Source: Gigantopelta aegis (taxonomy: Eukaryota > Mollusca > Gastropoda > Neomphalida > Peltospiridae). From it: 64,000 bases of DNA. The stretch is from NCBI RefSeq assembly GCF_016097555.1, contig NW_024532765.1, positions 62,001-126,000 of the forward strand, given 5' to 3'. How positions within the stretch are numbered: the first letter of the stretch is position 1; each line of letters starts with the position of its first letter. Shown one piece after another: positions 7,811-54,088 of this stretch. The position numbers and the translations under genes are program-made. The notes beneath the pieces are model-generated. The model made no database searches. It saw nothing but the letters and a program-made list of their open reading frames with translations, and was not told the origin of the DNA.

Positions 7811-9534
7811 CATGTATCTTGAAATTCTGAAGATGTTCCAATAGTAGTGAGAGCAGTATTCTTTCCATCAGAGCTGACTGATAATCTTCTAATTAGATGT
7901 GGACCAAAGCTTTCTGGCAAGTCATTGCTATCAAACCAACTTTTAAAGCACAGGTTTTGCATCAACAGTTTCAATGGAATGTAATTAAGGAACTTATATG
8001 CTTCTTCTTTCAAATCAGTAACCAGTTTGTCTCTCTTTAAAACTGATGGTTTACTGAGCAGAAGATTCAGGTGTTTGTAAACATGTGGAAGGTCATCACA
8101 TTTATCGTTGTGCCGGTTCTCATAGCAATGATGGTTGATTGCCGTTTCAAACCATTTCATCACCCACTTATACATCTTTTGATCAACTGCACTCCTCATT
8201 TGTTCAGAATCAAGTAATTTCAAATATAAAGTGTGTATATATTTATTTTCTGAGGCAACCATTACCCCATATATTTCTTCGCAAGATTCTTGTGATGTGA
8301 AAAGTATTTGAGAATCCATTAGCTTCAAGACTTGAGGGAAATCAGCAGAGTCAGATTTACGCAATCCTTTTACCATACTTATGACAGTTTTTGTAAGGAT
8401 TTCTGACACTACAGACACAATGTCTTCATGACTTGAAGTTAGATCATTTACCAGTTTAAGCAATGCATCAAAATTCTTTTCCTTTGCTGACTTTTTACTT
8501 TGAGCTACAATTCGTGATCGGAGAAGATCCAGCAGTACCTGCTGGTTTGTGGGTGTATGCAAAACCATAGATTGGACTATGTCGATAGTGCTAGAAATTG
8601 GAGCATGTTGCAGAAATTTCTGAAGAAGAATTGAAGCATCTTTATCTCCAGCTTTTTCCTGTTCAAGAATCTTGTTACAAATCCATTCACACATTTTTAA
8701 ATCACAAGAAAACTCCAACTGTCCTAAATTATCAAAATTACTCATTACAAAGGTAGATGATAACACAGGATAACAAAATTCTAACAAATGCACAATGAGG
8801 CTTGATTTGTTTGGAAATACAATTAAGCACAAATCTGAAACAATGTTTTCAAAACATTTTAGAGATCCTACAGGAAGTGCATTTTGTGGAAGTGTCTGCA
8901 AACCTTTAAGTATTGCTGTTGATGTTTGCTTTGAGATAGTTTTCACGTCATCCATTTTCTTTCTTCTAGAACCACTACACAACTGAGCACAAATATACCC
9001 AAAGAGAATGAATGTCTCCCTGTTGATATGTGACTGTTTTTCTGTTATGTATTGTTCCAAAGTACACAACAGTCTTCTGTTGTCCAACATCCTGGCATGT
9101 TCCATGTAATGTTTTGACAGTGAAATAAGATCATCTATTTCCATTATAATAATTTTTAAATTGTCTGCATTAACTACTGCAAGTTGATGCCTAAAATGTT
9201 GTACAAGACCCTTTTCAAAACTATCAATTCCTTTAATAATAAAAAAGTCACGAATCACTGGGGTAATCTTAACCTCTTTCCAGGAGTAATCTTGTAATAT
9301 TTCGGTACTTGTTCTCCAGAAACCCAGTTTCAAAACCTTAAATTTACAACGGTATTCTAGGCAAGGAGTATCAGCAGGCACCAACACAAAACCACTGCGC
9401 CAGATTTCTTCAAAAAGATGACACAAAGTGGTGTTAGCAGAATATCCATTTGGAGATTTAAATTCAACACAAACATCTGAACAGATCATCTCTTTCAGCA
9501 CAGGAATGTGCAGAATAATAGAACATGACAAAAG
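7811..9534 (-). CDS. Large internal exon of an RNF213-like E3 ligase gene
   Basis: This is a 1,724-nt exon, open throughout (574 codons plus 2 nt), and the longest host reading frame in the window. A good acceptor (TTTCATTTCAG) precedes position 9534 and a donor (GTATGG) follows 7811. The first ~110 residues look like a beta-rich, carbohydrate-binding-like segment; they include 'PADTPCLEYRCKFKV', the kind of 'leYkykv' stretch that precedes the helical arm of RNF213 proteins. The remainder is alpha-helical and leucine-rich, without Walker or RING motifs, as expected for the long N-terminal stalk. In RNF213 the AAA core and RING lie far downstream and would be on exons outside this window. The exon starts in phase 0, matching the phase-0 end of the exon at 27732-27872. 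It ends in phase 2 and I did not find the next exon. That it is a host coding exon is near certain; the RNF213 assignment rests on general character and is moderate. Confidence 0.72.
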
Positions 9535-9664
9535 CTGAAATGAAACAAAGAAACATTATTATTAATACATGCAAAACATTAAAAAGAAAAAAAGAAGTAT
9601 TTATTCACAGACCTTTTAGTCTAAATCCTAGATCATATTACATGATGTGACTAGAACCAACTGG

Positions 9665-9995
9665 GGTAGGTCATACATGTGGCTCGGTGGTACAAAAACA
9701 GAAAGAAAAGTGCTTGCCATATGCACAATCGGTCTTGAATCAATTCCCATTGGTGGACCCACTGGGATATTTCTTATTCCAGCTTGCACACCATAATTGG
9801 TGTAAAAAAGATCATGGTATGAATTATCCTGTCTGTGGGATGGTGTATATAAAAAATCCCCTGCTGCTTAATAGCTTCGGGTCAGCAAATTTCCTCTTTC
9901 ATTATATGTGTGGTCCTTTTTTAAACATATGTCCGACACCATATAACTATAATTTTAAATGTGGTAAATGTGTCGTTAAATAAAACATTTCTTCG
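9665..9995 (+). mobile_element. tRNA-derived SINE, plus strand
   Basis: Diverged full-length copy: tRNA-like head near 9680-9760 (GGCTCGGTGGTAC), body with CCTGTCTGTGGGATGGTG, tail TGTGTCGTTAAATAAAACAT followed by TTCTTC. It lies 130 bp upstream of the acceptor of the large RNF213-like exon, opposite in orientation to the gene. Confidence 0.75.
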
Positions 9996-10764
9996 TTCTG
10001 TCAAGTTGAGATGTATATCACTGTGTTAACAAATCAATGTATTTGAATTACCTAATTGTAGCAGGCTAATACAATGCACAAACTCCAAATTCAACCATTT
10101 GTTTCTTCTTGTGCCAAGGCAGCTTTTGGTCAAGCAGTTTGAAATTTGTTTTTAAATTTGCTTCATTTTCCTATTTTGGGGGCCACCCTTGGGTCTCTGA
10201 GGGTCAGAATGACTGAATTCCTTGATTTGTTTCTCCATATGCCAAGGAAGCTTCTCACAAAATTTGGTTAGATTTGACTAAGTGATTTTGGAGAAGAAGT
10301 CACAGAAATAACAGTTTTGATGCATTTCTCCATACAACTATAGTAAACATCATCCCCACCCCAGTACAAATGGGAGACCCAACATTAATAATATTCTCAA
10401 ATAAGATAAACCATCTGTAGACTTTTACATCTATAAAGAATATTTGGTTGTAGCATTTCCTGAAGCAGAGATGATTTTTTTTAATTGGCTTAATTTCCTC
10501 CTTTTAGCCCCACCCCTCAGGCCCCTAGGTGGGGGTAGTGATGTGCGGTTTTGAAATTTGGCTTCGGTTTCAATTTCGGTTTTCAGTTTTGGCAAAATGT
10601 AGAGTTTCAGTTTCGATTTTCAGTTTTTATTTACATTTTATTGAAATTTGGTTTGGCAATAAGAAAACTTTGCAAAGTTCAAAAAGAATAGTTTGTAGAA
10701 CAATCAGGTTCCAGTCTTGTGGGTCTATTAAAAACATTTTTAAATACTAGTCAGCCTAGTTAGT
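9996..10764. other. Repeat-like non-coding DNA
   Basis: Contains 'GAGGGTCAGAATGACTGAAT' and 'TTCTCCATATGCCAAGGAAGC'-type sequence and a 'TTCGGTTTC' microrepeat (10560-10635). No coding or element boundary could be fixed. Confidence 0.4.
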
Positions 10765-11375
10765 AAATGTAACAAGAGTACTGGTGAGGTACATAATACA
10801 TGATAGGAATTTGATGGAAAATCATAAATATTAATGAATATGTTACAGATATGATTCAATTTTAATTCTGTGAAATGTTTGCAATGGGATGGATAAATAT
10901 TTTGTTTTGGACCAACTACTGATGATTGGAGAAGGTGTCATCTGATTAATGAAGTTATTGTTCTTTATTAGAATGGTCCTGCATGCATCTGTATGCAAGA
11001 TCTGATCCAGACAAGGATTTAGGCCTACTGTTATGTGCAGTACGTAGACCGTGACCTAGTAATAGTATTCGACACATCCCAAGTTATTCCTACATGTGAG
11101 GTTTGATGGTCTTGTACGCATCTGTATGCAAGATATGGTCCAGATAAGGATTTACTGTTAAGTGCAGTACACTGTGAAAAGTAGGTCACAGTGACCTAGT
11201 AATAGTATGCAACACACCACCATCCCAAGTTCTTCCTACATGTGAGGTTTGATGGTCCTGTACATGCATCTATATGCAAGATATGGTCTGGAAATGGATT
11301 TAGTGTTATATGTGCAGTAGACCATGAAAAGTAGGTCACAGTGACCAAGTAATAGTACGCGACACACATGTGTTC
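10765..11375 (+). repeat. Repeat block with ~130-150-bp tandem units carrying ERE palindromes
   Basis: A leader (GATATGATTCAATTTTAATT type, GAAATGTTTGCAATGGGATG) is followed by three imperfect units. These contain CTACATGTGAGGTTTGATGG, CATCTGTATGCAAGATATGG and GTAGGTCACAGTGACCTAGT. The same leader and units recur at 54475-54960, and the leader alone at 15085-15240. Confidence 0.8.
11183..11197. promoter_or_regulatory. Perfect oestrogen-response-element palindrome (in repeat)
   Basis: AGGTCACAGTGACCT, the classical vertebrate vitellogenin-type ERE with inverted AGGTCA half-sites and 3-bp spacer. It is part of a repeat unit, so use as a regulatory site is unproven. A one-mismatch copy lies at 11333-11347. 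Confidence 0.5.
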
Positions 11376-11429
11376 GTTACATTTATTAAATTATAAAGTG
11401 TTTTTATTTTTCTTCTTATGTTCTCATTC

Positions 11430-12260
11430 CATTTACTACTTCATATGAGGTCACTTTAGGGGTTGTTGTCCTTGGGTTTTAGGATGTCGAATATATGGCT
11501 TCCTCCAGCTCTAACTGGCTGATCGGGTGTGCCGAGGGTGGATGTCTTAAAAAGTTGCTGTAGTTCGATACACATTTGCTGTGTCATGCCTGCTGCTCAT
11601 GTTCATTTCAGAGGCAGTGTGATGTCTGTGTTGCTTGGTCTCCTGCCACGTGGGGAAATTTTATGGTGAGAAGGGTCCTTCTCAAGTACGATTTGCTGGT
11701 GGTCTACAAGTCAGTGCCAGTGTCCAAGAGCGTGCAGACGAGTGGTAGGCACAAGGGCACCTCCTCATCTGTCGGCCAAGGTCATGGCAATCCCGTTAAA
11801 CTGAAGGTGTCTACCAGGTTGGAGTCAGCTCCGGCAGTGAATGTGGTTTCGTCTCCGTCAGTGCAGCTGCAACAGTGGTGCCCATCGAGGGGTGGGGTGG
11901 GGGGGGGGGGGTGGGGCGCTGTCATGTCGGTCATGGCTGTACCTCTCAGTTCCGATTCCCATCGTAGCGAAGAAAGCTGGGTTGCCGATCCCTCGGTGGA
12001 GAATACTGGCAGCTCGAGGGCACCATCGGTTTCACGACGCCATTCTGCCTACCAGGCTTCTGGTGGAGGATTGGTTGCAGTGCCATTAGATTTGGGACTG
12101 CTTTGGTCAGGGTGCCAATTGGCACTGTTTCGGTCAAGAAGCCGTTTGGCACTGTTTCAGATATGGTGCCTGTTAGTACCAGCAACTTTTTCTCTCCAGT
12201 GAGGGTGAAGTCATTGGGGTTTGTCAAAGGTGTTGAAAGAGGTTCGTATGTGTATGCAGG
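11430..12260 (+). mobile_element. Gag-like retroelement fossil, partial
   Basis: GC-rich region with gag-like coding character on the plus strand, including a Cys-rich N-terminal segment (CHACCSCSFQ ... CDVC) followed by a Ser/Pro-rich part. It resembles the ORF1/gag region of DIRS- or LTR-type retroelements, possibly the same family as 22690-25890. It is broken and partial, with a handful of breaks; no terminal repeats are visible. Probably old. Confidence 0.4.
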
Positions 12261-12866
12261 GCTCAAAACCCGTCAAAAAATATGGTGGCCCCAAAAAAAT
12301 GTCTGAGCCACTAAAATTTCATTTCCAGTGAGCCGAAATTTGCTTTATGTAGCCCAAACATGATAGCAGTAATACCAACATACATGATACTGAAATGAAA
12401 AATTAACCTGTTTCCTGTCATTCACGTGTATAATCGTCCTGCACTTAACATTGTTTTCATTTTAACAAAATTTCTACAAGAACTGACATTTTTGTCAAAA
12501 ACAATGAAGAATCTTAAAATGACATATCCAAATGTTTGCTAAATTGTTGTTGTACATCTTATGTTTTTTAGAAAATAGAAATGACCCGCCCAAAGGCGCA
12601 TGCTATTGTTTGTTATTGTTTCTTGTTAACGGTTTCTTTTATTTGTATAAATTTGTCATAATATGTTATAATATATGAACTATATTATGACAATTGCATT
12701 AAAATAAAATAAGTATCACTTTTTATGTCTAAAAAAGGTACAAACACAATCAAATAGTTGTAAGTTCAGTTATCAAAAAGCGCCATTTCCCTATTTCTAT
12801 TTATAAAAAAACAGGTCATGTGAAAGCACATTTCCCACCAGTACAATTTGATAGTAGTCATACACA

Positions 12867-13048
12867 CAGTGGCATAGCCAGTGGGGTGGGGCAGGGGGTC
12901 ATGCTCCCCCTCCCATCCCGGGAAATTTTTACCTTTTCGCTTATTAATAACATTAAAAAAGGTTCCTGTGTCATATCCCACCACTCAATATCAGTTTGCT
13001 CCCCCCCCCCCCCCCCCCTCCAAATACAAAATCCTGCCTACGTCACTG
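12867..13048. mobile_element. Short hAT-type MITE
   Basis: 182 bp with ends CAGTGGCATAGCCAG / CCTACGTCACTG and a perfect 8-bp duplication CATACACA (12859-12866, 13049-13056). It contains a 19-nt run of C. No coding capacity. Confidence 0.85.
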
Positions 13049-13499
13049 CATACACATTGCTCGCATGTGCTGCTAACCATTTGCATTAAAAATTACAATG
13101 GGATTTCTTATAATATAGCAGACGATATTCTAGCTATGTTTGCTTGGTCAGTTATGTCGACTATGCATGTGATCGAATACGTACATTCGTCATTGTTTTG
13201 TTGTGTTGTGTTGTTTGTTTTCTTTTGTGACTTTTTCTCCCAGTTTTTCCATTTTGTTTTTCAATATTACATTCACTCTGGTATTAATCACACTGAGTGA
13301 ACGTATACATTTTCTTCCTCTTTTTTTTTTTAATGAACTTGGGATGGGCAATGTTAAGGACAATATAATTGTGTGGTTATGGTATAAATAGAAAGAATTA
13401 TTGTATATTTGGGAGAGCTATTATTTTTCATCAAGGTGCTCTCGTATTTCTCATGGTGTTAAGACCGGGGTTTTCCAGGTAGATTCCTGAGGTTGGGAA

Positions 13500-14745
13500 T
13501 GAATGAATGTTTAACGATACCCCAGCACGAAAAATACATCGGCTATTGGGTGTCAAACTATGGTAATGGCAATAACAATGTGATGATAAACATCAATATA
13601 AAAATTCAACAGTTAAATAAAACACAGTGTAAAGAACTGTGAAAAAATACAACTATCACAGATAGATTAAATAAAAATTTAGAGTAAAAGTCAGTATCTC
13701 GTAAAAATTGCAATAAAAGTTCTGGACGGAATCGAGATGATTCCATCACATTTCTTTGTCCAAATATATCTTTTCGAGTTTTTGACAAATGCTTACACTC
13801 TACCAAAATGTGGCACACTGTCAGCGTACACTGACACTAGTGCACACACTGAGGTGGAGGATCTTTCTTCAAGATAAATTCCCTCCTGCACTGTCTATAG
13901 GAGGATTGCCACTCTCGCAAGACTGGCTTGATAGCATGAAGCTTGTTCGCAGCCGCACCGCCCCAATCATGTTGCCAAGTAAAAAAAATATATTGGTTGA
14001 TACTATGTTTAAAATCAGTATACGGTACACAAATCCTGGCATGAGGCAAATCTAAAGCAGACTTGGCAGCTGAATCTGCCTTTTCATTACCCCTGATGCC
14101 AACATGGCTGGGGACCCAACAAAATACAACATCTTTATTGACAATAGATAAAAAGACGCACTTTCGTATCACCATCCCATGTTTCGTAAAGCTTGAAGAC
14201 ACAAAAGTCAATCTGTAAAAATAATAAATTTGGATACACTAGAATCCTTTATTTCTTCCAAGGCTTTAATGACTGCCCATCAGCACTAAAAATTGATGCC
14301 GTGTTAGGCAGTCTCATGGAAAGTAGTGTATCTGATGGAAAAACTGTAGCACAAGCCACAGCATTCCCATCCTGTGATCCATCTGTATAAACAGGAATGC
14401 AATCACGGTATCTGTCTTGAATTTCCATGAAAAACTGTTTATACACAACAGCATCTGTACGATTTTTCTTCAGATACACAAGATCAAACACAATTTTAGG
14501 TGGTGTAATACACCAAGGTGGTAAAACAAAATATGAAGGAGTTTCCAAAGTGTCAGTTAAATCAATGTTGGAAAGCAACAAAAAACGCTGAATGCGAAGA
14601 CTAAATGTATGAATAGCATTTGACCTTGCATCAAACTTCATATATTTGTTATCAAATACTGCATCATATGTAGGATGTATAGGTAATGATTTAATCTTGG
14701 TAGCATACTGCAGAGAAAGCTTTGCATGTCTAGCACAAGGTGGAC
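13500..14745 (-). mobile_element. 5'-truncated LINE with RNase H domain
   Basis: Minus-strand frames preserve the end of a reverse transcriptase region (LSLQYATKIKSLPIHPTYDA and onward), then a ribonuclease H domain: 'PVYTDGSQDGNAVA' (first catalytic Asp), 'ASIFSAD', and downstream 'FCWVPSHVGIRGNEKADS' (last catalytic Asp) ending near 13840. A short cysteine-bearing tail (CHILVECKHLSKTR) follows at 13750-13815. At least one frame break separates the two RNase H halves near 14210-14250. The 3' end carries 'TTTAACGATACCCCAGCAC' and GAATGAATGAA repeats. It is 5'-truncated at about 14745 beside a 'GGACTCCTG' microrepeat. Related to the Nimb/Jockey-type LINEs with RNase H. Confidence 0.82.
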
Positions 14746-15084
14746 TCCTGAAATTGGACTCCTGTGGTTGGACTCCTGTGGGTGGTTGGACTCCTGAGAT
14801 TGGAATCGGGAGGTGTGAAACAGATTGGTGTGGTGTGAATCCGAGATGGTGTGGATTCCGTGATAAAGAACTGTTGATTTAAACTCCCGTTGTAAATCCA
14901 TTGATGGATGAGTGGGGTGAATGGCATGAATGATGAATGACTATGGTTTTCATGTAAATTTATTGTATTAAATATATAATTTTTTCATTTTTGTTGAGTT
15001 ATCTTTTCCATTTAGTATGTGACACGTATATAAGCAGTGAATGTTTTGGAATTATTTTTGTATGATAGATGACCATTTTAGACA

Positions 15085-15240
15085 AAGAGTAACGGTGAGG
15101 TACATGATACACCCATCAGGAGTTTGATTGAAAACCATTGATATTAATGAATATGTTATGGGTATGATTCAATTCTAATTATGTAAAATGTTTGCAATGG
15201 GATGGATGAACAGTTTGTTTTGGACCAACTACTGATGATA
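15085..15240 (+). repeat. Leader part of the ERE-bearing repeat, without units
   Basis: It matches the first ~155 bp of 10765-11375 (AAAGAGTAACGGTGAGGTAC through TTGGACCAACTACTGATGAT). The tandem part is absent. Confidence 0.7.
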
Positions 15241-15808
15241 CTGTGCATTTAAACTGTAATGTTTTCAGAACTACCAGACCATTTCCAACCAAATGTATTT
15301 GGCAGTTTCTCCTACCCATGGAAAAACAAAATCATGAATTTTGTCATTTTAATCCTCCTAGAAATATGGGTTCCCCGCACTCCATGTTTTTGGAAGTGCA
15401 TGTTGGTCACAAATTTACTCAGGTGACCGTTGGATCCATTTTGTATGATGTATAAGTGTTCAACACTGGATGCATTCTATGTATACATATTCTTGTTGTT
15501 GTTCTTCTTTGTTTCTTTGGGTTTAAAACAAATAATAAGTGAATGGACATTTTAAATAAATATTTTTTCTTTACAATTGTGACCATGTAAAGTAATTTTC
15601 ACCTTGAGAAATGAAGCACTATTGCAAGTATCTTGTGTTGCAATAAATTATTGAAATGCATAAAATCCATTTTACTATTTCTAGTATTCTAATATCAGTG
15701 TCCAGATTTTCTGCCACAGGGTATGAAGGGTAAAATTATGTAAACTAAAATCTTGGGAATTAATGGATACATTTTAATAATTTTTAGAACGATTATAGCA
15801 AGAGAGCT

Positions 15809-16480
15809 GGACCCATATTCACAAAATATCGTAAGCCTAGTTTTACACGTAAACGTAAATCTACGACTGAAGAGCTATTCACGAAACAACGAAAACGTAA
15901 GTTACGTGTAAAGTTGGACGTAAATATAAGAGTGCCTCAGGTTGCAACTAACGCTGCACGTAAGTTGTGTACATATAATAAATCAAGCACGATCGCCGTT
16001 ATTTACTATTATTTACGGAAACTAGCAGTATTTCCAATAAATGAAGCAGTTTGCGATGGCGAACGCCCACGGATTGAACATATTTTTGTTCGTGATCAAA
16101 CGGATGTTTTCGACTCGGCCAATTTCTCCTGAGTTATCTTTTCCTTTTTAAGAAATGTCCTCAAGTTCGTACCAAAACGCGGATCCCCACCAATACCAAA
16201 ATGCCATGGGTCACTGTTCGCAATGTTATTGTTAGCAGACAACAAACAAAATTGCGTTTTGCGCATTTGTTATTTACCCGGTAGCCATCGTTTTTTTAAT
16301 GTGTTTTTATTAATTACTCCAGTGAGAATGTTAAATCGTAGATTTACGTCCAACTAAGTTACGTTTACATTTACGACCATCTTTGAGAATAAGGTGCTTC
16401 TTGCACGTAAACGTAAATCTACGGCACACGTAAGTGCTAGTCGTAGACGTAAATTTACACTTGTTTGTGAATATGGGACC
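15809..16480. mobile_element. Harbinger-like MITE with residual coding sequence
   Basis: Inverted ends GGACCCATATTCACAAA / GGTCCCATATTCACAAA, with subterminal repeats of ACGTAAACGTAAATCTACG. A 73-codon plus-strand frame (15914-16132) contains 'ERPRIEHIFVRDQTDVFD', which resembles the 'RRxRxFRDRxDPFD' N-terminal stretch of HARBI1-type nucleases. I infer an internally deleted PIF/Harbinger element. The expected 3-bp duplication is not clean. Confidence 0.55.
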
Positions 16481-16670
16481 TGCTGTTTAAAACTTGTTAG
16501 TACATGAAATGCAGTTTCCAATTTCAAAAGATTCCAAACCCATAACCACTTGTGACCTGTTTTGTTGTTATTAAGTACCCTTAAATTATTGATTACTGGT
16601 GTCCTTTACTTTTGACCTAGTGACCCAAAAGTTGTTTGCACACAGCAAATAATTTTCCAGTTTTACATAG

Positions 16671-17055
16671 CTTACCATGGTAACCAATAGGTTACATTGG
16701 TTACCATATGGTAACAGTTTTGAACTGGGTACCATGGCAACATATAATTTTGAACTGGTTACCATGGTAACAAAATTAATAATTTTCAACTATCTTTTTT
16801 ACAGGCATAGTACAATTATGTCACTATACACTGTTTTTTTCTCAGTCCTTGAAAATTACTTTTTTCCCCCCTAGAAATTTGTTTTGTGTTTTGCATTGAT
16901 TACACATGTACTATGGTAACAGAATTCACAATTTTCACCTTTCTATTGTAAACAGCTAGGAGCTTATTGTTACGTCATTATACAGTGATTTATATTCATT
17001 TGAAACATTTCATATGTGAAATGTTTCATCTGTTTGCATTGGTTACCATGGTAAC
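16671..17055. promoter_or_regulatory. Cluster of RFX X-box palindromes
   Basis: Perfect GTTACCATGGTAAC at 16758-16771 and 17042-17055; close variants at 16671-16684, 16700-16715 (GTTACCATATGGTAAC) and 16728-16741 (GGTACCATGGCAAC). A further site, GTTGCCATGGTAAC, lies at 20046-20059. These match the RFX consensus GTNRCC..RGYAAC. They are embedded in repeat DNA. Confidence 0.55.
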
Positions 17056-17521
17056 AGAATTAATAAGTTTCATTTGAAAATGACAGAAAGTGAAAGGCCA
17101 TATACTTTTTTTTAAATCATGTGTCATTTGACAAACATATATAAAGTAATAGAGAAAGTATAAATATTTTTTGTGTCTTAGGTAATGTTGGACATGTCCA
17201 CAATTTACAAAAATGTGTGGATGGCAATATATGCATTTGATACTATTTAAAAAAAAAAAAATTGGCTGTCTACTTAATTGTTTTTTTTTCAAATTGAATA
17301 GTATGGTTATATTACGTAGATTTATATTCTTTGTATATGTGTGTGTAATTTCATGTTGAAATGTCAACTTATTTTCATAATATTACTAGAAATGTATAAT
17401 AGTTAATGTTGGACATTACCATGTTCATAATTTACAAAAAAAGCGTTGATGACAGAATGTGCATTTAAACCAATTTTTCAGAAGAAAAAAAAATGGCTGT
17501 TTACTTAATTTTTTTCTTTAA

Positions 17522-21186: not shown

Positions 21187-21188
21187 TA

Positions 21189-23450: not shown

Positions 23451-23469
23451 TATCTCAATGATCTCTCAA

Positions 23470-43972: not shown

Positions 43973-44469
43973 TAAAGTGACGTCAACATGTTTTGTTTCT
44001 TAAAGTTTCATGCAAGAACAATTAAATATGACCTATAGAATGGAGCTCTATATAGATTGTGAAATTTATTTATTCCCCACTCCCAAATGTTAATGAAGTA
44101 AATTTTAAAAGATGACACTTTAAATAAACGAGGCCTATATACATAGGCCTATTTTTACATACCTCTTCTACCATTTCTTGTAATTCTTAATTTTTTATTC
44201 CGCCTACTCTTGAATTGTCTTTGCTTATAATTCCTTTTTTTTTCAAGAAAGTAGAAAGTTGTACACTTGCCATTTTCTGGACCTCAAGCAAACTTGTATT
44301 GTTATGAACTATATAATCAAGACATTTGGGCAAAAACGCCGACATTGTTAATTTTTGACGAGAGAAATTTTGAAAAACATACTCCTCAGAAATTATTCAA
44401 AATTATGTTCATTTAGTTGTGTATGCATTGAAGGTCCTTTATCAATATTTATATATATATATTTATTAA

Positions 44470-44786
44470 TATTACTGCAGTGAAACTCTGCTATTACCAC
44501 CCCTTATTAAATGGTTTTATTTTGGGGAGATCTTAATATCGGATAAATAATAATCTATTACAATGAACTGTCAAGCCTAATTTAATGACGTTTGTGAGTT
44601 TGACCTTTATGTCCTTAAAGGAATGATCAGGCAAGGCTTTTGGACTCCGTCTGGTGTGCATATTCAACAATATTTAATGCATATTAGCTTAAAATGTTGG
44701 TATATTAATTTTCAAAATGGTAATGATATGAGTTGACTAAACAGTGTGGAGCGAGTTGGTTTTGAGGCGAGTTGACCTGCTCCCGT
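44470..44786. mobile_element. Partial copy of the CTGGTCAACTC element
   Basis: Inverted similarity to 30600-31015: shared stretches include the GCATATTCAACAATAT motif, the 'GTCAAGCCTA' segment and the end module GAGTTGGTTTTGAGG...GAGTTGACC at 44750-44776. Only one end is recognised, so the copy is truncated. Confidence 0.45.
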
Positions 44787-44789
44787 TAA

Positions 44790-46555
44790 ATAGTGATAAT
44801 TATGATTATAACTTGTGTTGTATGTTTATTTCTGTAGTGGATGTGATTATTGCTTGTACAGATTGCTGTCAGCTTAGTAATATTTTTTATTCCTTGTCAT
44901 ACGGTCATAAAAGCACCTTATTCACTTTGGTAAAACATTCCAGATGTTTGACTGTGGGTCCCGTGACAAAATAATAATTAGAATTTAATTACAACAGTTT
45001 GTAATAAAACTAAAACAAGTTCTGTTTCCTTCTTTTGTGTTGTTATTGTTTGTATGATATGATAACATGTTTTTAAAGTGCAATTTAAGTAAGTTCTTTT
45101 TTAAAACGAAATTCGGTCACTGGCCATTCAAAAGTTGTACGGGCGAGTCAAAGTGCTGCTGTGAGTGGTCCCATTGACCAGTCAAAAAATATCCCAAGTG
45201 CATACCCTGTAAGGTTTCCCAATATATTTAGCAACAATATGATATTTTAATCACATTTGGCGTGTTTACATTGGGATATTTGAAACAAGTTGAATATATA
45301 ACGTTATTATTCAAAGTTGTTTGCGTTTAGTTTTTCAGTAGGTTTTTTTACATTTCAGGTTTATATTTTCAACTCTTAGATATATTTATAGCAAACAAAA
45401 GGACACCGATTTATATTAGCGCAATGCAATACAACACTATTCACAATAATTCCATTGTATATTTACATCACATAATATAATTTTCAGATATCTGCACACA
45501 CATTTTCAAAGAAGTGGTTGTGTAACATTTTATTTATTACAATACCTTAAAAACAAATATGTATGTGTACCTGCTGGAACTTCTCTATTTAGAGTTACAA
45601 CTCGTTGCAAAATAAATGTAGTATCAAAAGCTACTTTAACATGCATTTAAATGCTACACTATTGTCCCAAGATTATTTTAGCACTTTTTTGTTTTGTCTT
45701 GTTAAAAATATTACTATGAAAATAAACTATTACACATGACATATCGCATGATCGGTTTCCAAATCGTTTTCTTGAGTGGCACAGTTTGTCATTACTGCAG
45801 ATGCATAAATATGCATCGTCATGCATGGCTAAGATGCCTATACATGGATTTTTCTCTTGGGTAGACTGTGTGCACACATTGATCTTATTTCGCTTTTATT
45901 TGTTGTAACAATGTGACAATTGTGAACTGGACTGAATGTCAAGTAAGCTAGGTGTTAAAACTTTAGTTTTGTTTGCATTTTTCTGTATTTTCCTTTTCAG
46001 TTTAAATAAAAATAAACCCAAAAAGAATGATACTGTTTCCTATAATTAAAAAAAAGCGGGAAAGGTGTTTTTTAGACTTGTTTTCGTAATCATCAGGGAT
46101 GAAGTGGTCACTGCAGATCCTATCGCATCATGACAGTCCTTTCCATTACACATGGGTTCGGTTTATAAGAACCGCTTCCATGCCAACCCTGCGATTGTTG
46201 GTTTGTCTAAAGTTTGGAAAAACTGCAGCTTTGATAATTCCAAAGACTAAACAATGGTTTACATTTGAAAACAATCTCCAAAAGAATATTCCATCCATAC
46301 AATTGAATTCACTGGAATAACATTTTCGCGTTTAAAAAACAAAACGTTTTCCAAATCAAATGTGTCAAAAGTCAGGTCAGGTCAGGTGTGAAAGCCTGTG
46401 CACAATAACGCTTTCATAGTATGCCACCTAGCACGTCACAGGGTCACACATGAATTAGCTAGAGGTTTTTTGGCAAGTGATGGGAAAAACACGACTTCTT
46501 ATTGCGAATATATTAAAAACGGGTAAAAATTTTGGAATTTGTTTTATTGATACTT
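44790..46555. other. Intron DNA without recognised features
   Basis: AT-rich, short frames only. A 'GTCAGGTCAGGTCAGG' microrepeat lies at 46371-46387. Confidence 0.5.
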
Positions 46556-46559
46556 CATA

Positions 46560-48080
46560 TATACACAAAGAAAAAAGTTAAGCACCCCTAGCCCCATTTG
46601 TAAAAACTGCAAATTATGTGAGGAATATGTCAAGAATGGTGAAATAATAGGAGGGTACAATGACAACTGTGACGTCCCACAACAGAACGACATGCACGTG
46701 CATCATGCCACCCATGCTTTTCTCAAAATGCAATATCAACACACTGCAATTGTTGACATTTAACATCACTGTCTTGTATTGTTGAAGTTTAATTGTTGAA
46801 TATGACAATTGGACGTTTATCAGAGGCCCAAAGATGGCGTATTATTGGTATGCATGCAACCAGCATGACCTTCAAAAGTATAGGACGTCAACTGGGGTAT
46901 CATTACACGGTAATCAGCAGACTGATACAAAAACACGGGCATACCAATGCTGTAAAGGATCTCCCACGGTCAGGGAGACTGCGCATGACATCACAGCACG
47001 AGGACAGGGCCCTGCGTCAGCTCATACGTCGTCAACCCTTTGCTATATCTCCTGTTCTAAAGAGCCAATGGTTACCCAATAGACGGATGTCAGCCAGAAC
47101 AGTGAGGAATCGTCTGAAATTTGCGGGATTGAAGGCCAGAAGGGTCATGAGAGATGCCGTTTAGCGTGGTGTTTGGCTCAGAGAGGTTGGAATCTGAGGT
47201 CCTGGTGAAGAGTCCATTGGTCCGATGAAAGCCGGTTCCTGCTCCATGTCACAGATGGCCATTTGAGAGTTTGGAGGCATAACAATGCTGCCTACACACC
47301 CAGGAACACACGTCCTATGACCCCGTATATTGGAGGTTCAGTAATGGTTTGGGGTTGCCTGTCACATGATTGTACGCTGGGTCTTGTCACCATTCAAGGC
47401 AACCTCAATGATGATTAGTACATCCGTAACGTCCTGCAACCAGCTGTTGTGCCATTTTGACACCATCCACTCGCCACCAGACCTCTGTACATTGATGACA
47501 ACACTAGGCCACATCGTTCCCGAGCAGTAACAGCTTTACTCCAAATTGAAGCTGTGACGAGCCCTGACCTAAACCTGCTAGGGAATGTTTGGGACATCTT
47601 GGGGCATTGAGTACAGACAGTGACCCCACTTGTACAGACTCTGGCACAATTAGAGGCAGTTCTTCATCGAGAATTGCAGCAGATCAGACAACTTACTGGA
47701 GGGATGAGACGAAGGATGGAAGCTGTCATCCGGGCACGTGGCGGGTTTACCCGCTATTGATGATTTGTGTCATGAATGTCATCTGTGGACTTCAAATGAC
47801 ATTAATCATCATCAATCATGATGCTGACTTGTGTTTCTGCCTCCATACTTATTGTGCCTCAGTTTTTGGCTCAAATACAGCATATTGGAATTCTTCTCAG
47901 AATTATGATTAAAATTTCAAAACTGGATACACTTGTTATGTTTTCTTACTGTCAAAGATGTATTCTTGCAAAACACATTTGTTTTTCCGAGGTTATGTTA
48001 TCAGGTTTTCAACGCCAAACCTCGCAAGACAAGTCATTGTAAAAAATACAGGGGGTGCTTAACTTGTTTCTTTGTGTATA
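46560..48080 (+). mobile_element. Decayed Tc1-type transposon of a second family
   Basis: Inverted ends (TATACACAAAGAAAAAAGTT on the left, its counterpart on the right) are flanked by TA at 46558-46559 and 48081-48082. A plus-strand transposase starts MTIGRLSEAQRWRIIGMHA (ATG at 46802) and runs to a stop at 47162; the helix-turn-helix and GRxR hook region are readable. Further pieces carry VHWSDESRF near 47210, GGSVMVWG near 47335, YIDDNTRPHR near 47490 and SPDLNLLGNVWD near 47565. Several stops and shifts separate them, and the WPA segment before SPDLN is shortened. It is clearly dead and older than the two other Tc1 copies. Confidence 0.9.
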
Positions 48081-48489
48081 TATTGTAAAAAGTATACGCA
48101 GATACCAAACAATAGTAAATTATGTTTTCAATAAGCCTGGACCTTTAAGAGCCTTTTTTTTTAATGGTCATTTGTAAAATAATTGTAAATATAAAACTAT
48201 ACCTTGACTAGAAAAAAAAAATACAATTTTTACCATGCCATGATAGCATGTTGGGTATGGGATACTCGGGCAATGTTTCCCCCAGGATTTTAGTTTTAGA
48301 ACTGAGCACTGGATTGGGGTGAGAATGCTAGGGGGCTTTGGGAGCATTATAGTGCAATAAAATTTTCTTGAAAATTTAGTTGCATTTAGATGCATTCTGG
48401 AGTACAAAATATATGGGGGTCATGAACACTTATTATAGAAGTCTAAAAAAAGAAATTTCAGTAATATAATGTTGTTTATTATTATTAGC

Positions 48490-49570
48490 CAGACCTGTCA
48501 ACCCTCCCGGATTCCGCGGGAGTCTCCCGGTATTTGATCAAATCCCCTTTACCTGTGCGGGAGACAGTTTCTCCTGTTAAATGACATTTTTGTAAGCATA
48601 AAAAAAATCGATCCTCTTTTTGTCAAAATAACAGAAGGGAAGTAACTCTCATTCGGAAAATGTCGACTACTTTCGGTTTCCGAGAATGTAACAGGCCGAA
48701 TTGTCCCCGACTGTTTAACCTTTGCCGAAGTGAGAATTGTGGGATAGCCTATTTATATTGTTAAAAAAACACATGGAGTTTATAAAATGACGTGTTATTA
48801 TAATGTTTGTTGTCATCGTAATGGCTACGAAGCGTGTTGCCGCTAATTTAGTTCTAATATTAATAACACCTCCCCCCCCCCCCCACCACTGGATTACATA
48901 ATGCAACTATGACGAATCTGAACTGCCAGACTCCCGAGTTGACAGCGATACACATGCATGTTAAAATCACATGGTACACTTCAAGAAATTATTTTTGTGT
49001 TTGACATTGACATAAAGTTACTCACGGAAATGGGTATAATTCCGGTATATTTCACACGATGTTTTACTTATGATTAATGAAAATACAATGTTTATTGCAT
49101 CATTATAATGATTTTAAATAAGTACCACGCCACCGTTCCTCATTATAGTAAAAACTGAATATTAATTTATAAGATTTATACAAATTTGTCTTTGGTACTT
49201 AGGTACACTAACCACAAATGATAATGTAACGCAACCTGTAAGGCTTTAAGTGTAATACCGTAAATGTACTAATTAATTTTTGTATTTCTTGTTCATGTTC
49301 TTGACATTTTTGGATAAAATAAATTTTTTTTAAAATATGTATTAAATCATAATAATATTAAACTTAAAAAATTTTTTTTTTTAATGCCAAGATCTAAGGT
49401 TAAGAAGTATATAAAGTATTCATATAACTTATTGTAATAATGTTTTTTTTAAATCTTGCGATTTTGGGTTAAATTGTGTGAATTTAAAAAATCTCCTGCT
49501 TTTTGACAAAATCTCCTGCTTTTTCAACACACACCTCCTGCTTTCTCTTGACTAAAGGTTGACAGGTCTG
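48490..49570. mobile_element. hAT-type MITE with CAGACCTGTCAACC ends
   Basis: Perfect terminal repeat CAGACCTGTCAACC / GGTTGACAGGTCTG, with the 8-bp duplication TTATTAGC at 48482-48489 and 49571-49578. Length 1,081 bp. 'CTCCCGG' and 'CTCCTGCTTT' motifs repeat near the two ends. No coding frame. Confidence 0.88.
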
Positions 49571-49647
49571 TTATTAGCATAATGTGAAATCTTTGATAAA
49601 CAATAATTTGAAAAAGACGTATGGAATAAGCACAATAGTACATAATA

Positions 49648-50522
49648 TCGTATAACCGGAAATTTTCGAGGATTTTTATTTTCGTGGGTTTCAAGGGTAA
49701 GTAGACAGCATCGAAAATATAAATCCTTGAAAATATTTGAAAAAATCAACAAATTCTATCTAAAATATTTATTGTGAAAACCATAACACACTTACAATTT
49801 ACCGGAACATTTTATTTCCTGTCATGCGCAGTCCACCGGATAATAGTATAGTCAAGACAACAAGTTAGAATTTTAAAAAAGTTATTGCGTGAATCTCACT
49901 GTTTGTAGAATATAATGAAATATTTTTAAATTTCGTATATTGTTTTAATTGTCAATGTCCGCCCACACTGCATCACTGATTCTGGGGTGGATGAAAGCAG
50001 ATTTCAACATTTTCTGGTGTATTTTTAATTCTGCCATAACTTTCATAATCCACCTTGCATGAATTGGTTTTATCGCCGAAGTACGCATTTCGATCTTGAT
50101 GTCTGTTACAACTTCGCCGTCTTTCATAGCCAGGGAAACCTGCTTTGAATACCATGTGGTAAACTCAGACTTCATGGCATCCTTAAGTGGTTTGTTCACA
50201 CATACGTCGTAATTGGCTTTACACAAAATCAAAGACTGATCATTTGTCTGTCGAATAGCATACCGGGTATCACAGTGGCCAATTAGGCTACAGGTGACTG
50301 TTCTATTGTTTAACTTTACACATCGGTGGTATCGAACAACTGGCAGCCGAGGTGAAACTTTAATAAACAATAGCAAGTATTCTCGCAACTAGACTTGCTA
50401 AAACTCAAAAATAAAATCACTTTAAATTTAGATTTGGCAAACGACGAAAATAAGAAACCTTGAAATGTTTTTATACCCCAAACCACGAAAAATTAAGACC
50501 ACGAAAATGTCCGGTTGTACGG
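49648..50522 (-). mobile_element. Pogo-type element with transposase remnant
   Basis: Inverted ends (TCGTATAACCGGAAATTTTC on the left, CCGTACAACCGGACATTTTC inverted on the right) with flanking TA. Only the C-terminal part of the transposase remains (49945-50388), so this is an internally deleted copy. It explains the CCGTA-type ends seen elsewhere in the window as pogo relatives. Confidence 0.7.
49945..50388 (-). pseudogene. C-terminal remnant of a pogo-type (DDE_1) transposase
   Basis: This is an open minus-strand frame of about 147 codons ending AVWADIDN. 'YDVCVNKPLKDAMKSEF' corresponds to the 'LDVGINKPFKDxxR' box that follows the last catalytic Asp in pogo/tigger transposases. The downstream 'ARWIMKVMAELKIHQKML' plus 'SAFIHPRISDAVW' corresponds to the 'WIxxAWxxIxxExIxxSFKKCGIxNALDG' tail. 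The N-terminal DNA-binding and catalytic regions are missing, so it cannot be functional alone. Identification is by motif order; no search was run. Confidence 0.6.
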
Positions 50523-50924
50523 TACATAGCATATACATGTACTGCTGAATTATTTAATTGACCACAAGTTACATAAATGTTATCATTGAAGTTTTAGTTT
50601 TTTAATATAATTATGCACATGCAAAGACATACTAATATATAATAGTGAATTAGTTGAATTTTTTTTTAATCTGCAATTCATTTTTCAGCTTTATTAATAG
50701 TTTTTAACAAATAAATTATACTCAATAAATTAAAAATACAAGGCTGCAATCGATGTACACCCCCTCCCCGTTGTTGCACTATTTAAAAACATTTGCGAGT
50801 AACAGAGCTCATGTTTACTTTGAGCCCAGCCATGGCTTTTTGGGAGAGACTTTTTCTCAGCTATGAGTGTATAAATACCCCAGAGAAGTGTTTTGGGACA
50901 AAGAATGTTAAATAATATACTCAC

Positions 50925-50988
50925 AATAATGACACTTGGGCCAAAATCCCTAAACATTTTTGAACCAATGCCAGCCATCAAAGAATAG
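50925..50988 (-). CDS. Exon-like fragment, possible membrane-transporter segment
   Basis: This is a short minus-strand open segment, YSLMAGIGSKMFRDFGPS followed by VII, ending at a consensus donor (ATT|GTGAGT). A weak acceptor (CACTTGTGAG) lies before 50988. The 'R-x-FGP-x-V-I-I' arrangement recalls the 'xDFGVPIxI' stretch of SLC4-type anion transporters. It lies in an intron of the RNF213-like gene and has no identifiable partner exon, so it may be a stray exon copy or chance. Confidence 0.15.
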
Positions 50989-51354
50989 CTCACAAGTGGA
51001 AAGGGATCTCACCACATCCACGGCCATACAAGTGGTCACTAAGGCATACATTGACACAATAATTATATTTAGATGAATAAGTGGACATGCACTACCAAAC
51101 AAATAACAAAGTTTAAATCAACAAATGGACACTATTTAAAAAATAAAGTTTAAATCACTAAATAGAGAAGACAGTGGACAGACATATACATTTAGTACTT
51201 CCTGGGTAAGTGTTGTAACCTATTGGCAAAATTCTTTATTTATGCAATTGGTAACACAATTGGTTACCTTAAGAAGTATGGGCAAGTGGAAACATGTATG
51301 GGGCATCGCTTGCCCTGTGGAAATTGATTTTTTTTTTTTTTAATTTAACCCCTG

Positions 51355-51612
51355 CTTGTCGTAAATTACTGTGTTTATTTACACTGTGGATACAGGAGTT
51401 GGTAGGAGCCGACATCACTTCATCCCAAGCTAAAGTACCGGATGCAAAGAAAACTAAACAAAATGGCTGCCCCAAGTTAGCAGGAATAATCAAGTTTTTT
51501 TTATTAACTCTAAAATTGTGTTTTTCATTTCTTAAAAGTGTCAGTATGTGTTGGTGGTTCGGGTATGCATCTTCCCAACACTTAAGGCTCATATTTGACT
51601 TATCCTCCCCTT
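51355..51612 (-). mobile_element. End fragment of the TTAA-element family
   Basis: Shares AAATGGCTGCCCC, TTAGCAGGAATAATCAAG and GTGTCAGTATGTGTTGG with 24250-24480. It ends at CCCCTTTAA and is followed directly by a SINE fragment. Confidence 0.55.
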
Positions 51613-51654
51613 TAATTTGCCATTGTGCTCCTAGAGTGTCTCCCTTGCTGCTAA

Positions 51655-51778
51655 TCGGAACAGTAACCCATGAAGTGGCGACAGCGGGTTTCCTCTCAAA
51701 ATCTGACGCCATATAACCGTAAATAAAATGTGTTGAGTGTGTCGTTAAATAAAGCATTTCTTTCTTTCTTTCCTAGAG
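51655..51778 (+). mobile_element. SINE tail fragment
   Basis: CCCATGAAGTGGCGACAGCG to TGTGTCGTTAAATAAAGC, then (TTTC)n. The head and half the body are missing. Confidence 0.7.
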
Positions 51779-51829
51779 TGTCCTCAAATGTTTTGTGATG
51801 TCCTGATTTCATGCCCCTCAAAGGCAATA

Positions 51830-53606
51830 CCGTAGATCTTTGCCTATAAGTCGAATTTTTTTCACCCAAAATTTATTTTATAATTTGTGGGGGTCGACTA
51901 AAAAGAGGGTAAAAAAATTTCACCCAAAAATATTACTGTTTTGGGGATTATTTTACAAGTTTTATTGTTGAAGTATGCCTTGTATTTATACTCAAATATG
52001 TTAATTTGACACATTTATTTTTTATAACCTATTTTTATTGGCATTAGAACGGTTTTGGTTATGCGAAAAGGCGTGCGATCTCACTCACATGCCAAGACAA
52101 CAGTCCACTTAGTTAAAATAACAGTCATCACTAATAGCAAAAATGTAAACAATACTAACTACCTGTTGCCTGAGTTTATTTTGAAATCTGGTCACTAGCA
52201 TTAATGGTTGTTCAAACAATGTTTTGTCAGTGATTAACTTCATGAATATTAGGGGTGCAACGATACGGTCAAAACCGTATTGCGATATATTGCGATATAA
52301 GAAACTGTATTGCAATATGTATTGCAATATGGTTGATATTATTTAAATTTAATATTTATGGGTTGTTTTTGTAATGAAAACAGAAGCCATAACTTTTTAA
52401 TGATCTTTATTAGTTTTAGCTGTCAGGCTAAATATTTTAGGCCATATTTTTATGTTTTAACACAATACTAGTCTACTAGAACACCGGTATGACGGTGTCA
52501 AACTATTTATAAATTGTCACATTCGGAAATCCTTACTATCGGGCTTTTCCGAGGTTATTAGCCGAGGTATTTTGAACGATCGGCCGAAGTATTTTGAACG
52601 ATCGGCCGAAGTATTCAGAGTTCAGTGAAAAACAGCAAAGTGTGATTCTTATTTGTTGGTTTATTTCTTTGAAGATGATAGCCGTAGCCGTAGCCGTATT
52701 CCAACGTAAATGAACAATGAATGATAATGTGTAAGTAACAAAACATTTATTTATAATTATTGTTAACTGGTTATTTTCATTGGACTTTTAACACGTTTTG
52801 TTTAGAAGTTAGAACCCAAGTATAACCGACCTATCACTTCGTATGCCAACAAGTAAGCCGACTACGCTTGACGTGATTGTTACATTTTCTGTCATCACCA
52901 ATTAATAAAATGATGTGGTTTTTGTTTGTTTGTTTGTTTGCCTATTTCAAGTCAAATAAGATACAAGGAACAAAAATAGCGTATAAAAATCGCGATACGC
53001 AAAACTGTACCGCGGTTTGTATCGAGCTGATCAATTATCGCGGTATACCGGTATACCGGTTTATCGTTGCAGCACTAATGAATATTACTGAGCTTTCCCT
53101 TAAAATAACTTAAGACTGATCTCTGCAGTTTACTAGAGCATCATTTGGTACAAAAACCAGTGTACTTTCCAGAGTTATCCTCCTTACATGTATTAATATG
53201 GCGGCAAAACATGTGAAAAAACGATGATACATGGACTTTCAGTTTTATCGTAGTGATCTGTTGTCAGTGTTTACAAATAAAGTTGTTGTCTGTGCATAAA
53301 ATCATGCTGTACAGTGCCATACAGTAACAGTCAAACAGCTTTCACTATCTACTAAGGGAATATTTTGTTTTGATGCAATGTGGGTTGACTGGAATATTGC
53401 GATGAACAAAACGTGAAAACCGAAGTTTGTAAACTAATTTTCTTTTGTTCAAAATATTGTACATTATTTTTCTCATGTGCTGAAAATAAGAAATACTTCA
53501 ATATTTATAAGTTGTTTTTCATGGGTCGACTTATAAACGGGTCAATAAACAAATACATTTTCAGGGCTGGAAATTAGGGACTCGACTTATAGGCGAAGAT
53601 ATACAG
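51830..53606. mobile_element. Pogo-type non-autonomous element (CCGTAGATCTT ends)
   Basis: Inverted ends CCGTAGATCTTTGCCTATAA / CTGTATATCTTCGCCTATAA are flanked by TA at 51828-51829 and 53607-53608. A GGGTCGAC(T)TA motif recurs near both ends. It contains a later hAT insertion (52250-53077). No transposase. The pogo assignment is by analogy with 49648-50522, which has similar ends and a transposase remnant. Confidence 0.65.
52250..53077. mobile_element. hAT-type MITE (TAGGGGTGCAACGATA) nested in a pogo-type element
   Basis: 828 bp with ends TAGGGGTGCAACGATA and TTATCGTTGCAGCACTA, and a perfect 8-bp duplication ATGAATAT (52242-52249, 53078-53085). Subterminal repeats of 'TTGCGATAT' and 'GCGGTATACCGG' are characteristic of this widespread animal family. 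No coding frame. Confidence 0.85.
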
Positions 53607-53688
53607 TAATTGTAGTGCCCCATCTAACAACAAAAACCCAACCCTGATAATAGTATAAACAGAAAACTAATTTTATACTTGTACTCAC

Positions 53689-54088
53689 TTGTGAACATTT
53701 TTAAAATGATTTTTAGCCTTTCTGGTTGTCTTTTTTTCATCAAACAGATCCACATCCAGTTTGACATGGGAACTTTGACCAACATGAGAAAATACACCAA
53801 GATCCACTTCCAATCCTAAACCAACAACAAATTCTGTAATTGATTTAGTCAGCTCTCCGTTGTGAACAACTTTCCTTATTTCTTCAAATTCTTCCAAAGA
53901 GGATACAGTCAGAGTTATTCTAAGTTCTGTAGATATTTTGACCACTCTGACATTTTCATATGCTTGAAAACATTTGGTCAGTAAGTGGGTTTCTTGTAAG
54001 CATTGATACACAGTTCTATGGTCTTCTATCTCCTCATCGTCTTTACCACTGTCATGTACAAGAAGAGGATCAAGACTTATATCAAATT
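53689..54088 (-). CDS. Exon with a TRADD-N-like domain, 5' part of the RNF213-like gene
   Basis: This 400-nt exon is preceded by a long pyrimidine tract and CAG, and ends at a good donor (AA|GTGAGT). It encodes about 133 residues. It starts 'EFDISLDPLLVHDSG' and continues through an acidic stretch. The core is amphipathic helix (YQCLQETHLLTKCFQAYENV), beta strand (VVKISTELRITLTVSSL), helix (EEFEEIRKVVHNGELTKSI), strand (TEFVVGLG). A strand '(I/V)xLTVxSLEEFEE' followed by a short helix with 'NGELTKSITEFV' is the pattern I associate with TRADD N-terminal-type adaptor domains of invertebrate immune proteins; no search was run. The exon begins in phase 1, so at least one upstream coding exon exists, which I did not locate. 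It ends in phase 2, matching the exon at 36329. The coding call is strong; the domain name is tentative. Confidence 0.65.

What the first reader, a model, noticed from the sequence alone, without database searches (positions are those of the whole stretch)
7811..54088. A TRADD-N-like domain joined to an RNF213-like stalk in one minus-strand gene
Four exons spread over 46 kb keep a single frame: phases 2/1, 0/0 and 0/0 at the three junctions. The first seen exon has the strand-helix-strand pattern of TRADD N-terminal-type adaptor domains. The last has the helical character of the RNF213 N-terminal arm. If right, this is a death-signalling-type adaptor domain fused to a giant ubiquitin ligase, a plausible invertebrate antimicrobial architecture that I do not know to be described. 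Splice phases are seen directly; both domain names are inference.
Basis: partly seen in the sequence, partly recalled or inferred. Interest (0 to 1): 0.72.

Follow-up and report, generated by a model that had tools for sequence, protein, structure and literature searches.

The report
RNF213-like giant with TRADD-like head
A gene family in this genome joins a small domain that folds like the death-signalling adaptor TRADD to a giant RNF213-type ATPase that appears to have lost its ubiquitin-ligase parts, which suggests a new build of an antimicrobial protein.

Summary
Exons 54088-53689, 36329-36245 and 9534-7811 (minus) stand where stated, in the stated phases. With a start exon upstream and a 12.4-kb last exon downstream of the window they give one 4,884-aa frame. 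The last exon is RNF213's AAA+ core (E 2e-112), both ATP sites intact. Seven of 8 copies of the first exon have the arm exon downstream on the same strand. 'TRADD-N-like' holds at fold level only: Foldseek's top PDB hit is TRADD's N-domain (TM 0.50, prob 0.69, E 0.16), but no sequence test supports it and the family's turn motif is absent. 'Ubiquitin ligase' looks wrong: no RING found, and the RZ finger lacks its zinc His and catalytic Cys in 5 of 5 giants examined, although purifying selection persists there. Best reading: an ATPase-only RNF213 relative, probably a coating scaffold whose head recruits partners; TRAF-type ligases as partners are inference. No RNA data were available.

The parts
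53689..54088 (-). Second coding exon: TRADD-N-like domain (predicted beta-alpha-beta-beta-alpha-beta), from residue 11 of the protein
36245..36329 (-). Third coding exon: 85 bp, Lys/Glu-rich linker
7811..9534 (-). Fourth coding exon (arm exon), 1,724 bp: beta-sandwich then helical stalk
9265..9534 (-). Part of the arm exon: predicted beta-sandwich (about 90 residues), at the position where human RNF213 has its CBM20 domain; no sequence match to a CBM
7811..9264 (-). Part of the arm exon: predicted all-helical stalk
36330..53688 (-). Intron between the TRADD-N-like exon and the linker exon; holds Tc1-type transposase copies
9535..36244 (-).
1..7810 (-). First part of the 39-kb intron that leads out of the window to the giant last exon (window-number -31484 to -43896, C602:30516-18104); the start exon lies off the other end (window-number 69400-69370, C602:131400-131370)

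Best explanation
The window holds three of the five coding exons of one member of a locally expanded gene family that encodes RNF213-like AAA+ proteins of about 4,900 residues. The N-terminus is a TRADD-N-like domain, followed by a charged linker, a beta-sandwich and helical stalk, then the RNF213-type AAA ring with both ATP sites intact. The ubiquitin-ligase chemistry appears lost: no RING, and an RZ finger reduced to a Cys-x-Cys...Cys-x-x-Cys remnant. Most likely it works as an ATP-driven scaffold that coats invaders or membranes, cannot ubiquitylate by itself, and uses its N-terminal domain to bring in signalling partners, possibly TRAF-type ligases. Shown: one frame, linkage, AAA+ homology, intact Walker residues, missing RZ catalytic residues, purifying selection. 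Inferred: kinship with TRADD-N, coat formation, and every statement about partners.
For: Continuous 4,884-aa frame with standard splice sites. 7 of 8 copies of the first exon are followed by the arm exon on the same strand, and 5 of those 7 by a giant-exon match; in the C8:65.56 Mb copy arm and giant exon are 514 bp apart. Giant exon against RNF213 structures: E 2.4e-112 to 2.8e-104 (9 of 16 listed sequences). Walker A and B of AAA3 and AAA4 kept in 3 of 3 giants inspected. First-exon model pLDDT 88.8, pTM 0.79; best of 350,542 PDB chains is TRADD-N 1F3V, prob 0.69 against 0.16 for rank 2. RZ His and Cys absent in 5 of 5 giants examined, of 7 giant loci found (residue roles from PMC11549300); no RING family in 5 of 5 C-terminal parts. 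Giant exon against the C8:19.99 copy: dN/dS 0.24 over 3,394 codons and 0.33 over the first 547; 0.28 in the window with the RZ remnant. Human RNF213 coats on Toxoplasma vacuoles need ATP hydrolysis but form without RZ activity (PMC11549300 passages), so an E3-dead coat is possible.
Against: TRADD-N similarity is not significant by itself (E 0.16, TM 0.50, rmsd 7.1; no hit at E<=0.001), and 1F2H, the other TRADD-N entry, is not among the 50 hits listed. 385 of 2,000 shuffled TRADD sequences score at least as well against the family profile as TRADD itself, and 180 of 200 in a global hhalign test. The C-terminal region matches no RNF213 structure by sequence, so 'RING lost' is an absence, not an aligned deletion, and the RING pattern had no positive control; the RZ assignment leans on weak flanking similarity (best E 0.035-0.19, below HMMER's inclusion threshold). 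Loss of the RING alone would not kill activity: RING-less mouse RNF213 auto-ubiquitylates strongly (PMC7311170 passage). Only two giants (C602, C8:65.56) were seen with one unbroken full-length frame; C8:19.99 changes frame and C8:19.54 has a stop. The linker exon shows dN/dS 1.15 (28 codons) and three first-exon pairs 0.8-1.2. No expression or functional data.
Confidence: 0.5

Rival explanations
1. It is an active RNF213-type ligase: RING and RZ elements are present but too diverged to recognise, or lie on small exons spliced in beyond the giant exon.
For: The C-terminal region is so diverged that it misses RNF213 altogether; four cysteines remain at the RZ position.
Against: A permissive Cys/His RING pattern finds nothing in 3 of 3 giants (no positive control); the residues matching His4509 and Cys4516 are missing in 5 of 5, whereas 10 of 11 RZ loci of this genome show the Cys, the eleventh being cut by an intron there (three of the 11, on C1 and C15, may be other RZ proteins); the giant frame runs about 760 residues past the RZ remnant to its own stop.
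Confidence: 0.17
2. The first exon encodes a lineage-specific RRM/ferredoxin-like domain unrelated to TRADD; the resemblance is of fold class only. The gene is still an E3-dead RNF213 relative. (Overlaps with the best explanation except for the head.)
For: No sequence signal to TRADD or NCOA6; no TRADD family in Pfam scans, although the same library finds NCOA6's TRADD-N in this genome at 9e-29; turn motif absent; other Foldseek hits are cyclase, Thg1, ferredoxin-like and RRM folds.
Confidence: 0.3
3. Decaying duplicates: the cluster is a set of degenerating RNF213 copies without function.
For: Frame changes or stops in several copies; dN/dS 0.8-1.2 in three of four young first-exon pairs and 1.15 in the linker exon.
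Against: 4,884-aa unbroken frame; dN/dS 0.16-0.39 in each of 14 windows of the giant exon against the C8:19.99 copy, 0.33-0.59 in 10 of 10 arm-exon pairs, 0.38-0.40 in three older first-exon pairs; same architecture in the distant C8:65.56 copy (39% identity).
Confidence: 0.08

Closest known systems
RNF213 (mysterin), human and mouse
   Same: AAA+ core by sequence (E 2e-112), both active ATP sites, size (4,884 aa; the human entries in the PDB list have 5,247), order of parts: N-terminal region, beta-sandwich, helical stalk, AAA ring, C-terminal module
   Different: TRADD-N-like domain where human RNF213 is unstructured (residues 1-398; PMC12440826 passage); no RING found; RZ catalytic Cys and zinc His absent; most of the protein on one 12.4-kb exon
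TRADD N-terminal domain (1F3V, 1F2H)
   Same: Predicted alpha+beta fold with four main strands; top PDB match
   Different: No sequence signal, no tiny-Ser turn motif, no death domain found by Pfam in the pieces scanned, fused to an AAA+ giant
Metazoan TRADD-N expansions (NCOA6 and DEDD2 clades; Kaur et al. 2021, PMC8195603)
   Same: A TRADD-N-type domain in large, lineage-expanded immune-type proteins (sections 8-10 read)
   Different: RNF213 does not occur in that paper's main text; its supplementary architecture tables were not open to me
RZ-bearing RNF213-like genes of the same genome (C4, C1369, C3894)
   Same: Short matches to the AAA4 region of the giant on C4, two of them on the same strand upstream of an RZ hit
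   Different: RZ exons intact; no first-exon match there

Membership tests
RNF213 family | RNF213-type AAA+ core | tested here: met
   phmmer against PDB, E 2.4e-112 to 9jw1, also 8s24 and 6tax; Pfam AAA_5 1.3e-8
RNF213 family | Walker A and B in AAA3 and AAA4 | tested here: met
   GETGCGKT / FLDEIN and GKPGCSKS / VILDEIG at residues 2042/2099 and 2358/2430; 3 of 3 giants inspected
RNF213 family | RING domain | tested here: not met
   No RING family at E<=1 in 5 of 5 C-terminal parts or at E<=5 in residues 215-4179 of the C602 giant frame; no permissive pattern in 3 of 3
RNF213 family | RZ finger with zinc ligands C4505, H4509, C4525, C4528 and nucleophile C4516 (PMC11549300) | tested here: not met
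   His and catalytic Cys absent in 5 of 5 giants examined, of 7 giant loci found; Cys-x-Cys and Cys-x-x-Cys remain
RNF213 family | N-terminal CBM20 beta-sandwich and helical stalk | tested here: inconclusive
   Model shows beta-sandwich 1-90 then helices; no sequence match in PDB, only scattered weak Pfam hits in single members or two
TRADD-N domain | RRM-like two-layer alpha+beta fold | tested here: met
   Model pLDDT 88.8, main elements E-H-E-E-H-E; top PDB hit 1F3V_A, TM 0.50, E 0.16. Met by a predicted model only
TRADD-N domain | Tiny-Ser (uS) motif in the beta2-beta3 turn | tested here: not met
   Turn is [S/T]-x-[E/D]-[L/F/S] in 8 of 8 copies against the motif described in PMC8195603 section 8
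TRADD-N domain | Sequence-profile similarity | tested here: not met
   No TRADD family in Pfam scans; TRADD within its shuffles; hhalign 0.2%, residues 46-82 to TRADD 63-99; hhalign to NCOA6 domain 0.2%
TRADD-N domain | Binds a TRAF MATH domain | not testable with these tools
   needs a binding experiment

The most novel reading that the evidence does not exclude
An RNF213 lineage that gave up its own ubiquitin-ligase chemistry and outsourced it: the AAA+ ring still senses or coats invaders, and an N-terminal TRADD-N domain recruits TRAF-type ligases or death adaptors to the coat. Without a RING it would also lack the surface by which the bacterial effector IpaH1.4 seizes human RNF213 (PMC12440826 passages), so the family could be a guard or decoy-proof version. 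The first exon has a much lower synonymous divergence than the body of the gene in one paralogue pair (dS 0.13 against about 1), as if heads were exchanged between family members.
Probability: 0.25. Interest if true: 0.85.

Novelty: new variant of a known kind. Interest (0 to 1): 0.62.

Why it matters
RNF213 is known as a giant ligase that coats and ubiquitylates invaders; what its ATPase ring does by itself is an open question (PMC11549300 introduction passage). A natural family that keeps the ring under purifying selection while the ligase residues are gone would separate the two activities and make the ring's own role testable. If the head is a true TRADD-N domain, it would join RNF213 to TNF-type signalling in one protein, which my searches did not find described.

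Tried and rejected
Pfam and PDB sequence searches of the two exons gave nothing usable; the lowest E-values of the first-exon profile (3.8e-7 and 1.4e-3) are to designed repeat proteins, the first built from several short weak stretches, and were set aside. A strict RZ pattern found nothing even in the RZ loci, where the finger is split by introns, so the Pfam hits were read instead. Foldseek of the arm exon listed generic helical repeats. Foldseek of the first exon against viral proteins gave only weak hits (best E 0.064, prob 0.38), used as a yardstick. The unrelated-genes reading was rejected on linkage, the decay reading on selection. The organism was not identified; 'animal' is inferred from introns and an NCOA6 gene. 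Papers: PMC8195603, sections 8-10 and find passages; PMC11549300, PMC12440826, PMC7311170, PMC12075652, find passages only; all others as search listings. The look of CBM20 and TRADD's sequence came from memory as leads; TRADD was then checked, CBM20 was not.
Full report
What was checked. The window is G000:C602:62001-126000 of an unnamed 1.15-Gb assembly. The exon starting at 36329 ends at 36245 and is 85 bp. The phases 2/1 and 0/0 are right. The fourth exon has no coordinates in the finding, is not needed for the frame, and I found no candidate.

Linkage. Searching the whole genome with the first exon gives 9 rows at E<=10; 8 are at E<=1.2e-4 and one (E 3.6) was dropped. Searching with the arm exon gives 9 rows at 8 loci (two rows are the two halves of a copy on C930 with a stop inside). 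Seven of the 8 first-exon copies have an arm-exon match downstream on the same strand, 9.3 to 44.2 kb away: C602, C8:20.05, C8:19.43, C8:19.61, C8:19.93, C8:65.59 Mb and C1637; the copy on C1627 does not. Conversely 7 of 8 arm loci have a first exon; C930 does not. All 8 first-exon copies have a phase-1 AG acceptor and a phase-2 GT donor. The small middle exon recurs at the right place in the C8:20.05 Mb copy; other copies were not examined for it.

The rest of the gene. Downstream of the window, C602:30516-18104 is one open exon whose acceptor (TTTCAG) is in the phase that the arm exon's donor needs. In the C8:65.56 Mb copy the two exons are 514 bp apart. Upstream, comparison with one C8 copy reveals a first coding exon at window-number 69400-69370: ATG, ten codons in all and one base, then GTAAGT. 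Joined, the five exons read 4,884 residues without a stop, 556 kDa. The TRADD-N-like domain is thus the extreme N-terminus, after MAAASSGQPFE.

RNF213 identity. The giant exon matches human and mouse RNF213 over the AAA+ region at E 2.4e-112 to 2.8e-104 (9 of 16 listed sequences; the other 7 are at E 0.04 or worse). Both active ATP sites are complete (their roles from PMC12075652 passages). Further giant-exon loci: C8:19.99, 19.89, 19.54 (fragment), 19.25 and 65.56 Mb, and C3069; one search also lists short matches on C4 and small contigs that I take for the RZ-bearing RNF213-like genes. Five of the 7 linked first-exon/arm loci have a giant match downstream; C8:19.61 and C1637 (arm at the contig end) do not, within searches that score only the best candidates.

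Loss of ligase parts. No RING family is found by Pfam in residues 215-4179 of the C602 giant frame or in 5 of 5 aligned C-terminal parts. A permissive Cys/His pattern finds none in 3 of 3 giants; 1 of 200 shuffles of the C602 sequence matches it, and I ran no positive control. Between the AAA+ part and the next conserved block four giants have a linker of 41-51 residues and C602 an Asp/Ser-rich one of 191. At the RZ position all 5 giants examined keep Cys-x-Cys and Cys-x-x-Cys but lack the zinc-binding His and the catalytic Cys (residue roles from PMC11549300). That this is the RZ position is supported, weakly, by the block that follows. Three overlapping profiles of that region were run against 1,432 reading frames from 14 loci (12 loci of the RZ search, one of them below the family cut-off, and two loci). 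The best frame in all three is the one right after the RZ exon of L024 (E 0.035, 0.065, 0.19), and the second in two of them is the frame right after the RZ exon of L027 (E 0.45, 0.75); all lie below HMMER's inclusion threshold. The same genome has RNF213-like genes with RZ exons on C4 and C1369. Against this: the C-terminal region as a whole matches no RNF213 structure by sequence, so the missing RING is an absence rather than an aligned gap. And RING loss alone does not abolish activity in mouse RNF213 (PMC7311170 passage); the case for a dead ligase rests on the RZ residues, whose change abolishes pathogen ubiquitylation in human RNF213 (PMC11549300 passages).

The head domain. An alignment of 8 copies gives a confident model (pLDDT 88.8 for the best of five, 56-76 for the others; pTM 0.79). 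Of 350,542 PDB chains the best match is 1F3V chain A, TRADD's N-domain bound to TRAF2 (E 0.16, prob 0.69, TM 0.50, rmsd 7.1); rank 2 has prob 0.16, and no hit reaches E 0.001. The best viral-library hit, taken as noise, has E 0.064 and prob 0.38. Sequence methods do not support kinship. No TRADD family appears in Pfam scans of 8 of 8 copies and no TRADD entry in PDB profile searches. hhalign gives 0.2%. 385 of 2,000 shuffled TRADD sequences reach TRADD's score against the family profile, and 180 of 200 in a global hhalign test. NCOA6's TRADD-N in this genome is easily seen by the same Pfam library. The tiny-Ser turn motif that Kaur et al. describe is replaced by [S/T]-x-[E/D]. I therefore call the domain TRADD-N-like and do not file it as a member.

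The arm exon. Its model (pLDDT 83.0, pTM 0.67) is a beta-sandwich of about 90 residues followed by helices, the order seen in human RNF213 (CBM20 at 378-515, then the stalk; PMC11549300). Neither sequence searches nor the 50 listed Foldseek hits identify it, so this is a positional inference.

Selection. Pairwise Nei-Gojobori estimates. Giant exon, C602 against C8:19.99: dN/dS 0.24 over 3,394 codons and 0.33 over the first 547, 0.16-0.39 in 14 windows, 0.28 in the window holding the RZ remnant (placed). Against C8:65.56 dS is saturated. Arm exon: 0.33-0.59 in 10 of 10 pairs of 5 of the 8 loci. First exon: 7 of the 28 possible pairs were computed; three older pairs give 0.38-0.40; of four pairs with dS about 0.1, three give 0.8-1.2 and one 0.24. 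Linker exon: 1.15, from 28 codons. So the body is clearly constrained, the head less clearly in its youngest copies. Between C602 and the C8:20.0 Mb gene, dS is 0.13 in the first exon, 0.18 in the tiny linker exon, 1.06 in the arm exon and 0.93-1.06 in the giant exon: the head seems to have a younger common history than the body, as after gene conversion or exchange.

Mechanism. ATP hydrolysis is needed for human RNF213 coats, and on Toxoplasma vacuoles coats form without RZ activity (PMC11549300). A protein with the ring but no ligase residues could still coat. The head could add the missing output by recruiting a ligase, as TRADD-N recruits TRAF2 (PMC8195603). The last step is speculation with a clear test.

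Novelty. Full-text searches found no description: TRADD-N with RNF213 (0 papers); at least three of TRADD, RNF213, fusion, domain architecture (46 papers; of the 10 listed none holds both TRADD and RNF213); RNF213 with words for a missing RING (3 papers; one is the mouse RNF213 structure paper, where the one 'RING-less' passage found is about mouse RNF213 acting without its RING); RNF213 with mollusc, oyster, expansion (1,567 papers with three of four terms, 12 listed). The library lacks most subscription journals, and the supplementary tables of PMC8195603 were not available, so an earlier description is possible.

Noticed in passing
window 41397-42542 (-); 29106-30260 (-); 46793-47164 (+): Tc1-type transposase copies: one open frame of 381 aa with DDE_3 and HTH domains, one broken relative, one fragment.
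   Followed up: partly
window 13837-14878 (-): Retroelement remnant; Pfam sees an RNase H fragment in 13837-14238.
   Followed up: no
C602:36000-42000 (window-number about -26000 to -20000): Overlapping long reading frames inside the last intron that look like a retroelement (not searched).
   Followed up: no
L016 and L049/L050 (C8:65.55-65.59 Mb): A distant, complete-looking copy of the family (39% identity in the giant exon), 45 Mb from the cluster: probably the oldest split.
   Followed up: partly
L051/L052, C8:20003330: The giant exon of the C8:19.99 copy changes frame here: either a damaged copy or an assembly error.
   Followed up: partly
L021-L028 (C4:10.8-12.4 Mb, C1369, C3894): A second, RZ-bearing RNF213-like expansion in the same genome.
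   Followed up: partly
L054 (C1080:57087-57200): Ankyrin-repeat-like frame with a weak TRADD-like_N hit (E 0.27, below cut-off).
   Followed up: no
C602 giant, residues 2701-2891 of the 4,179-aa open frame: Repetitive Asp/Ser/Ala/Val-rich linker of 191 residues where four other copies have 41-51.
   Followed up: partly
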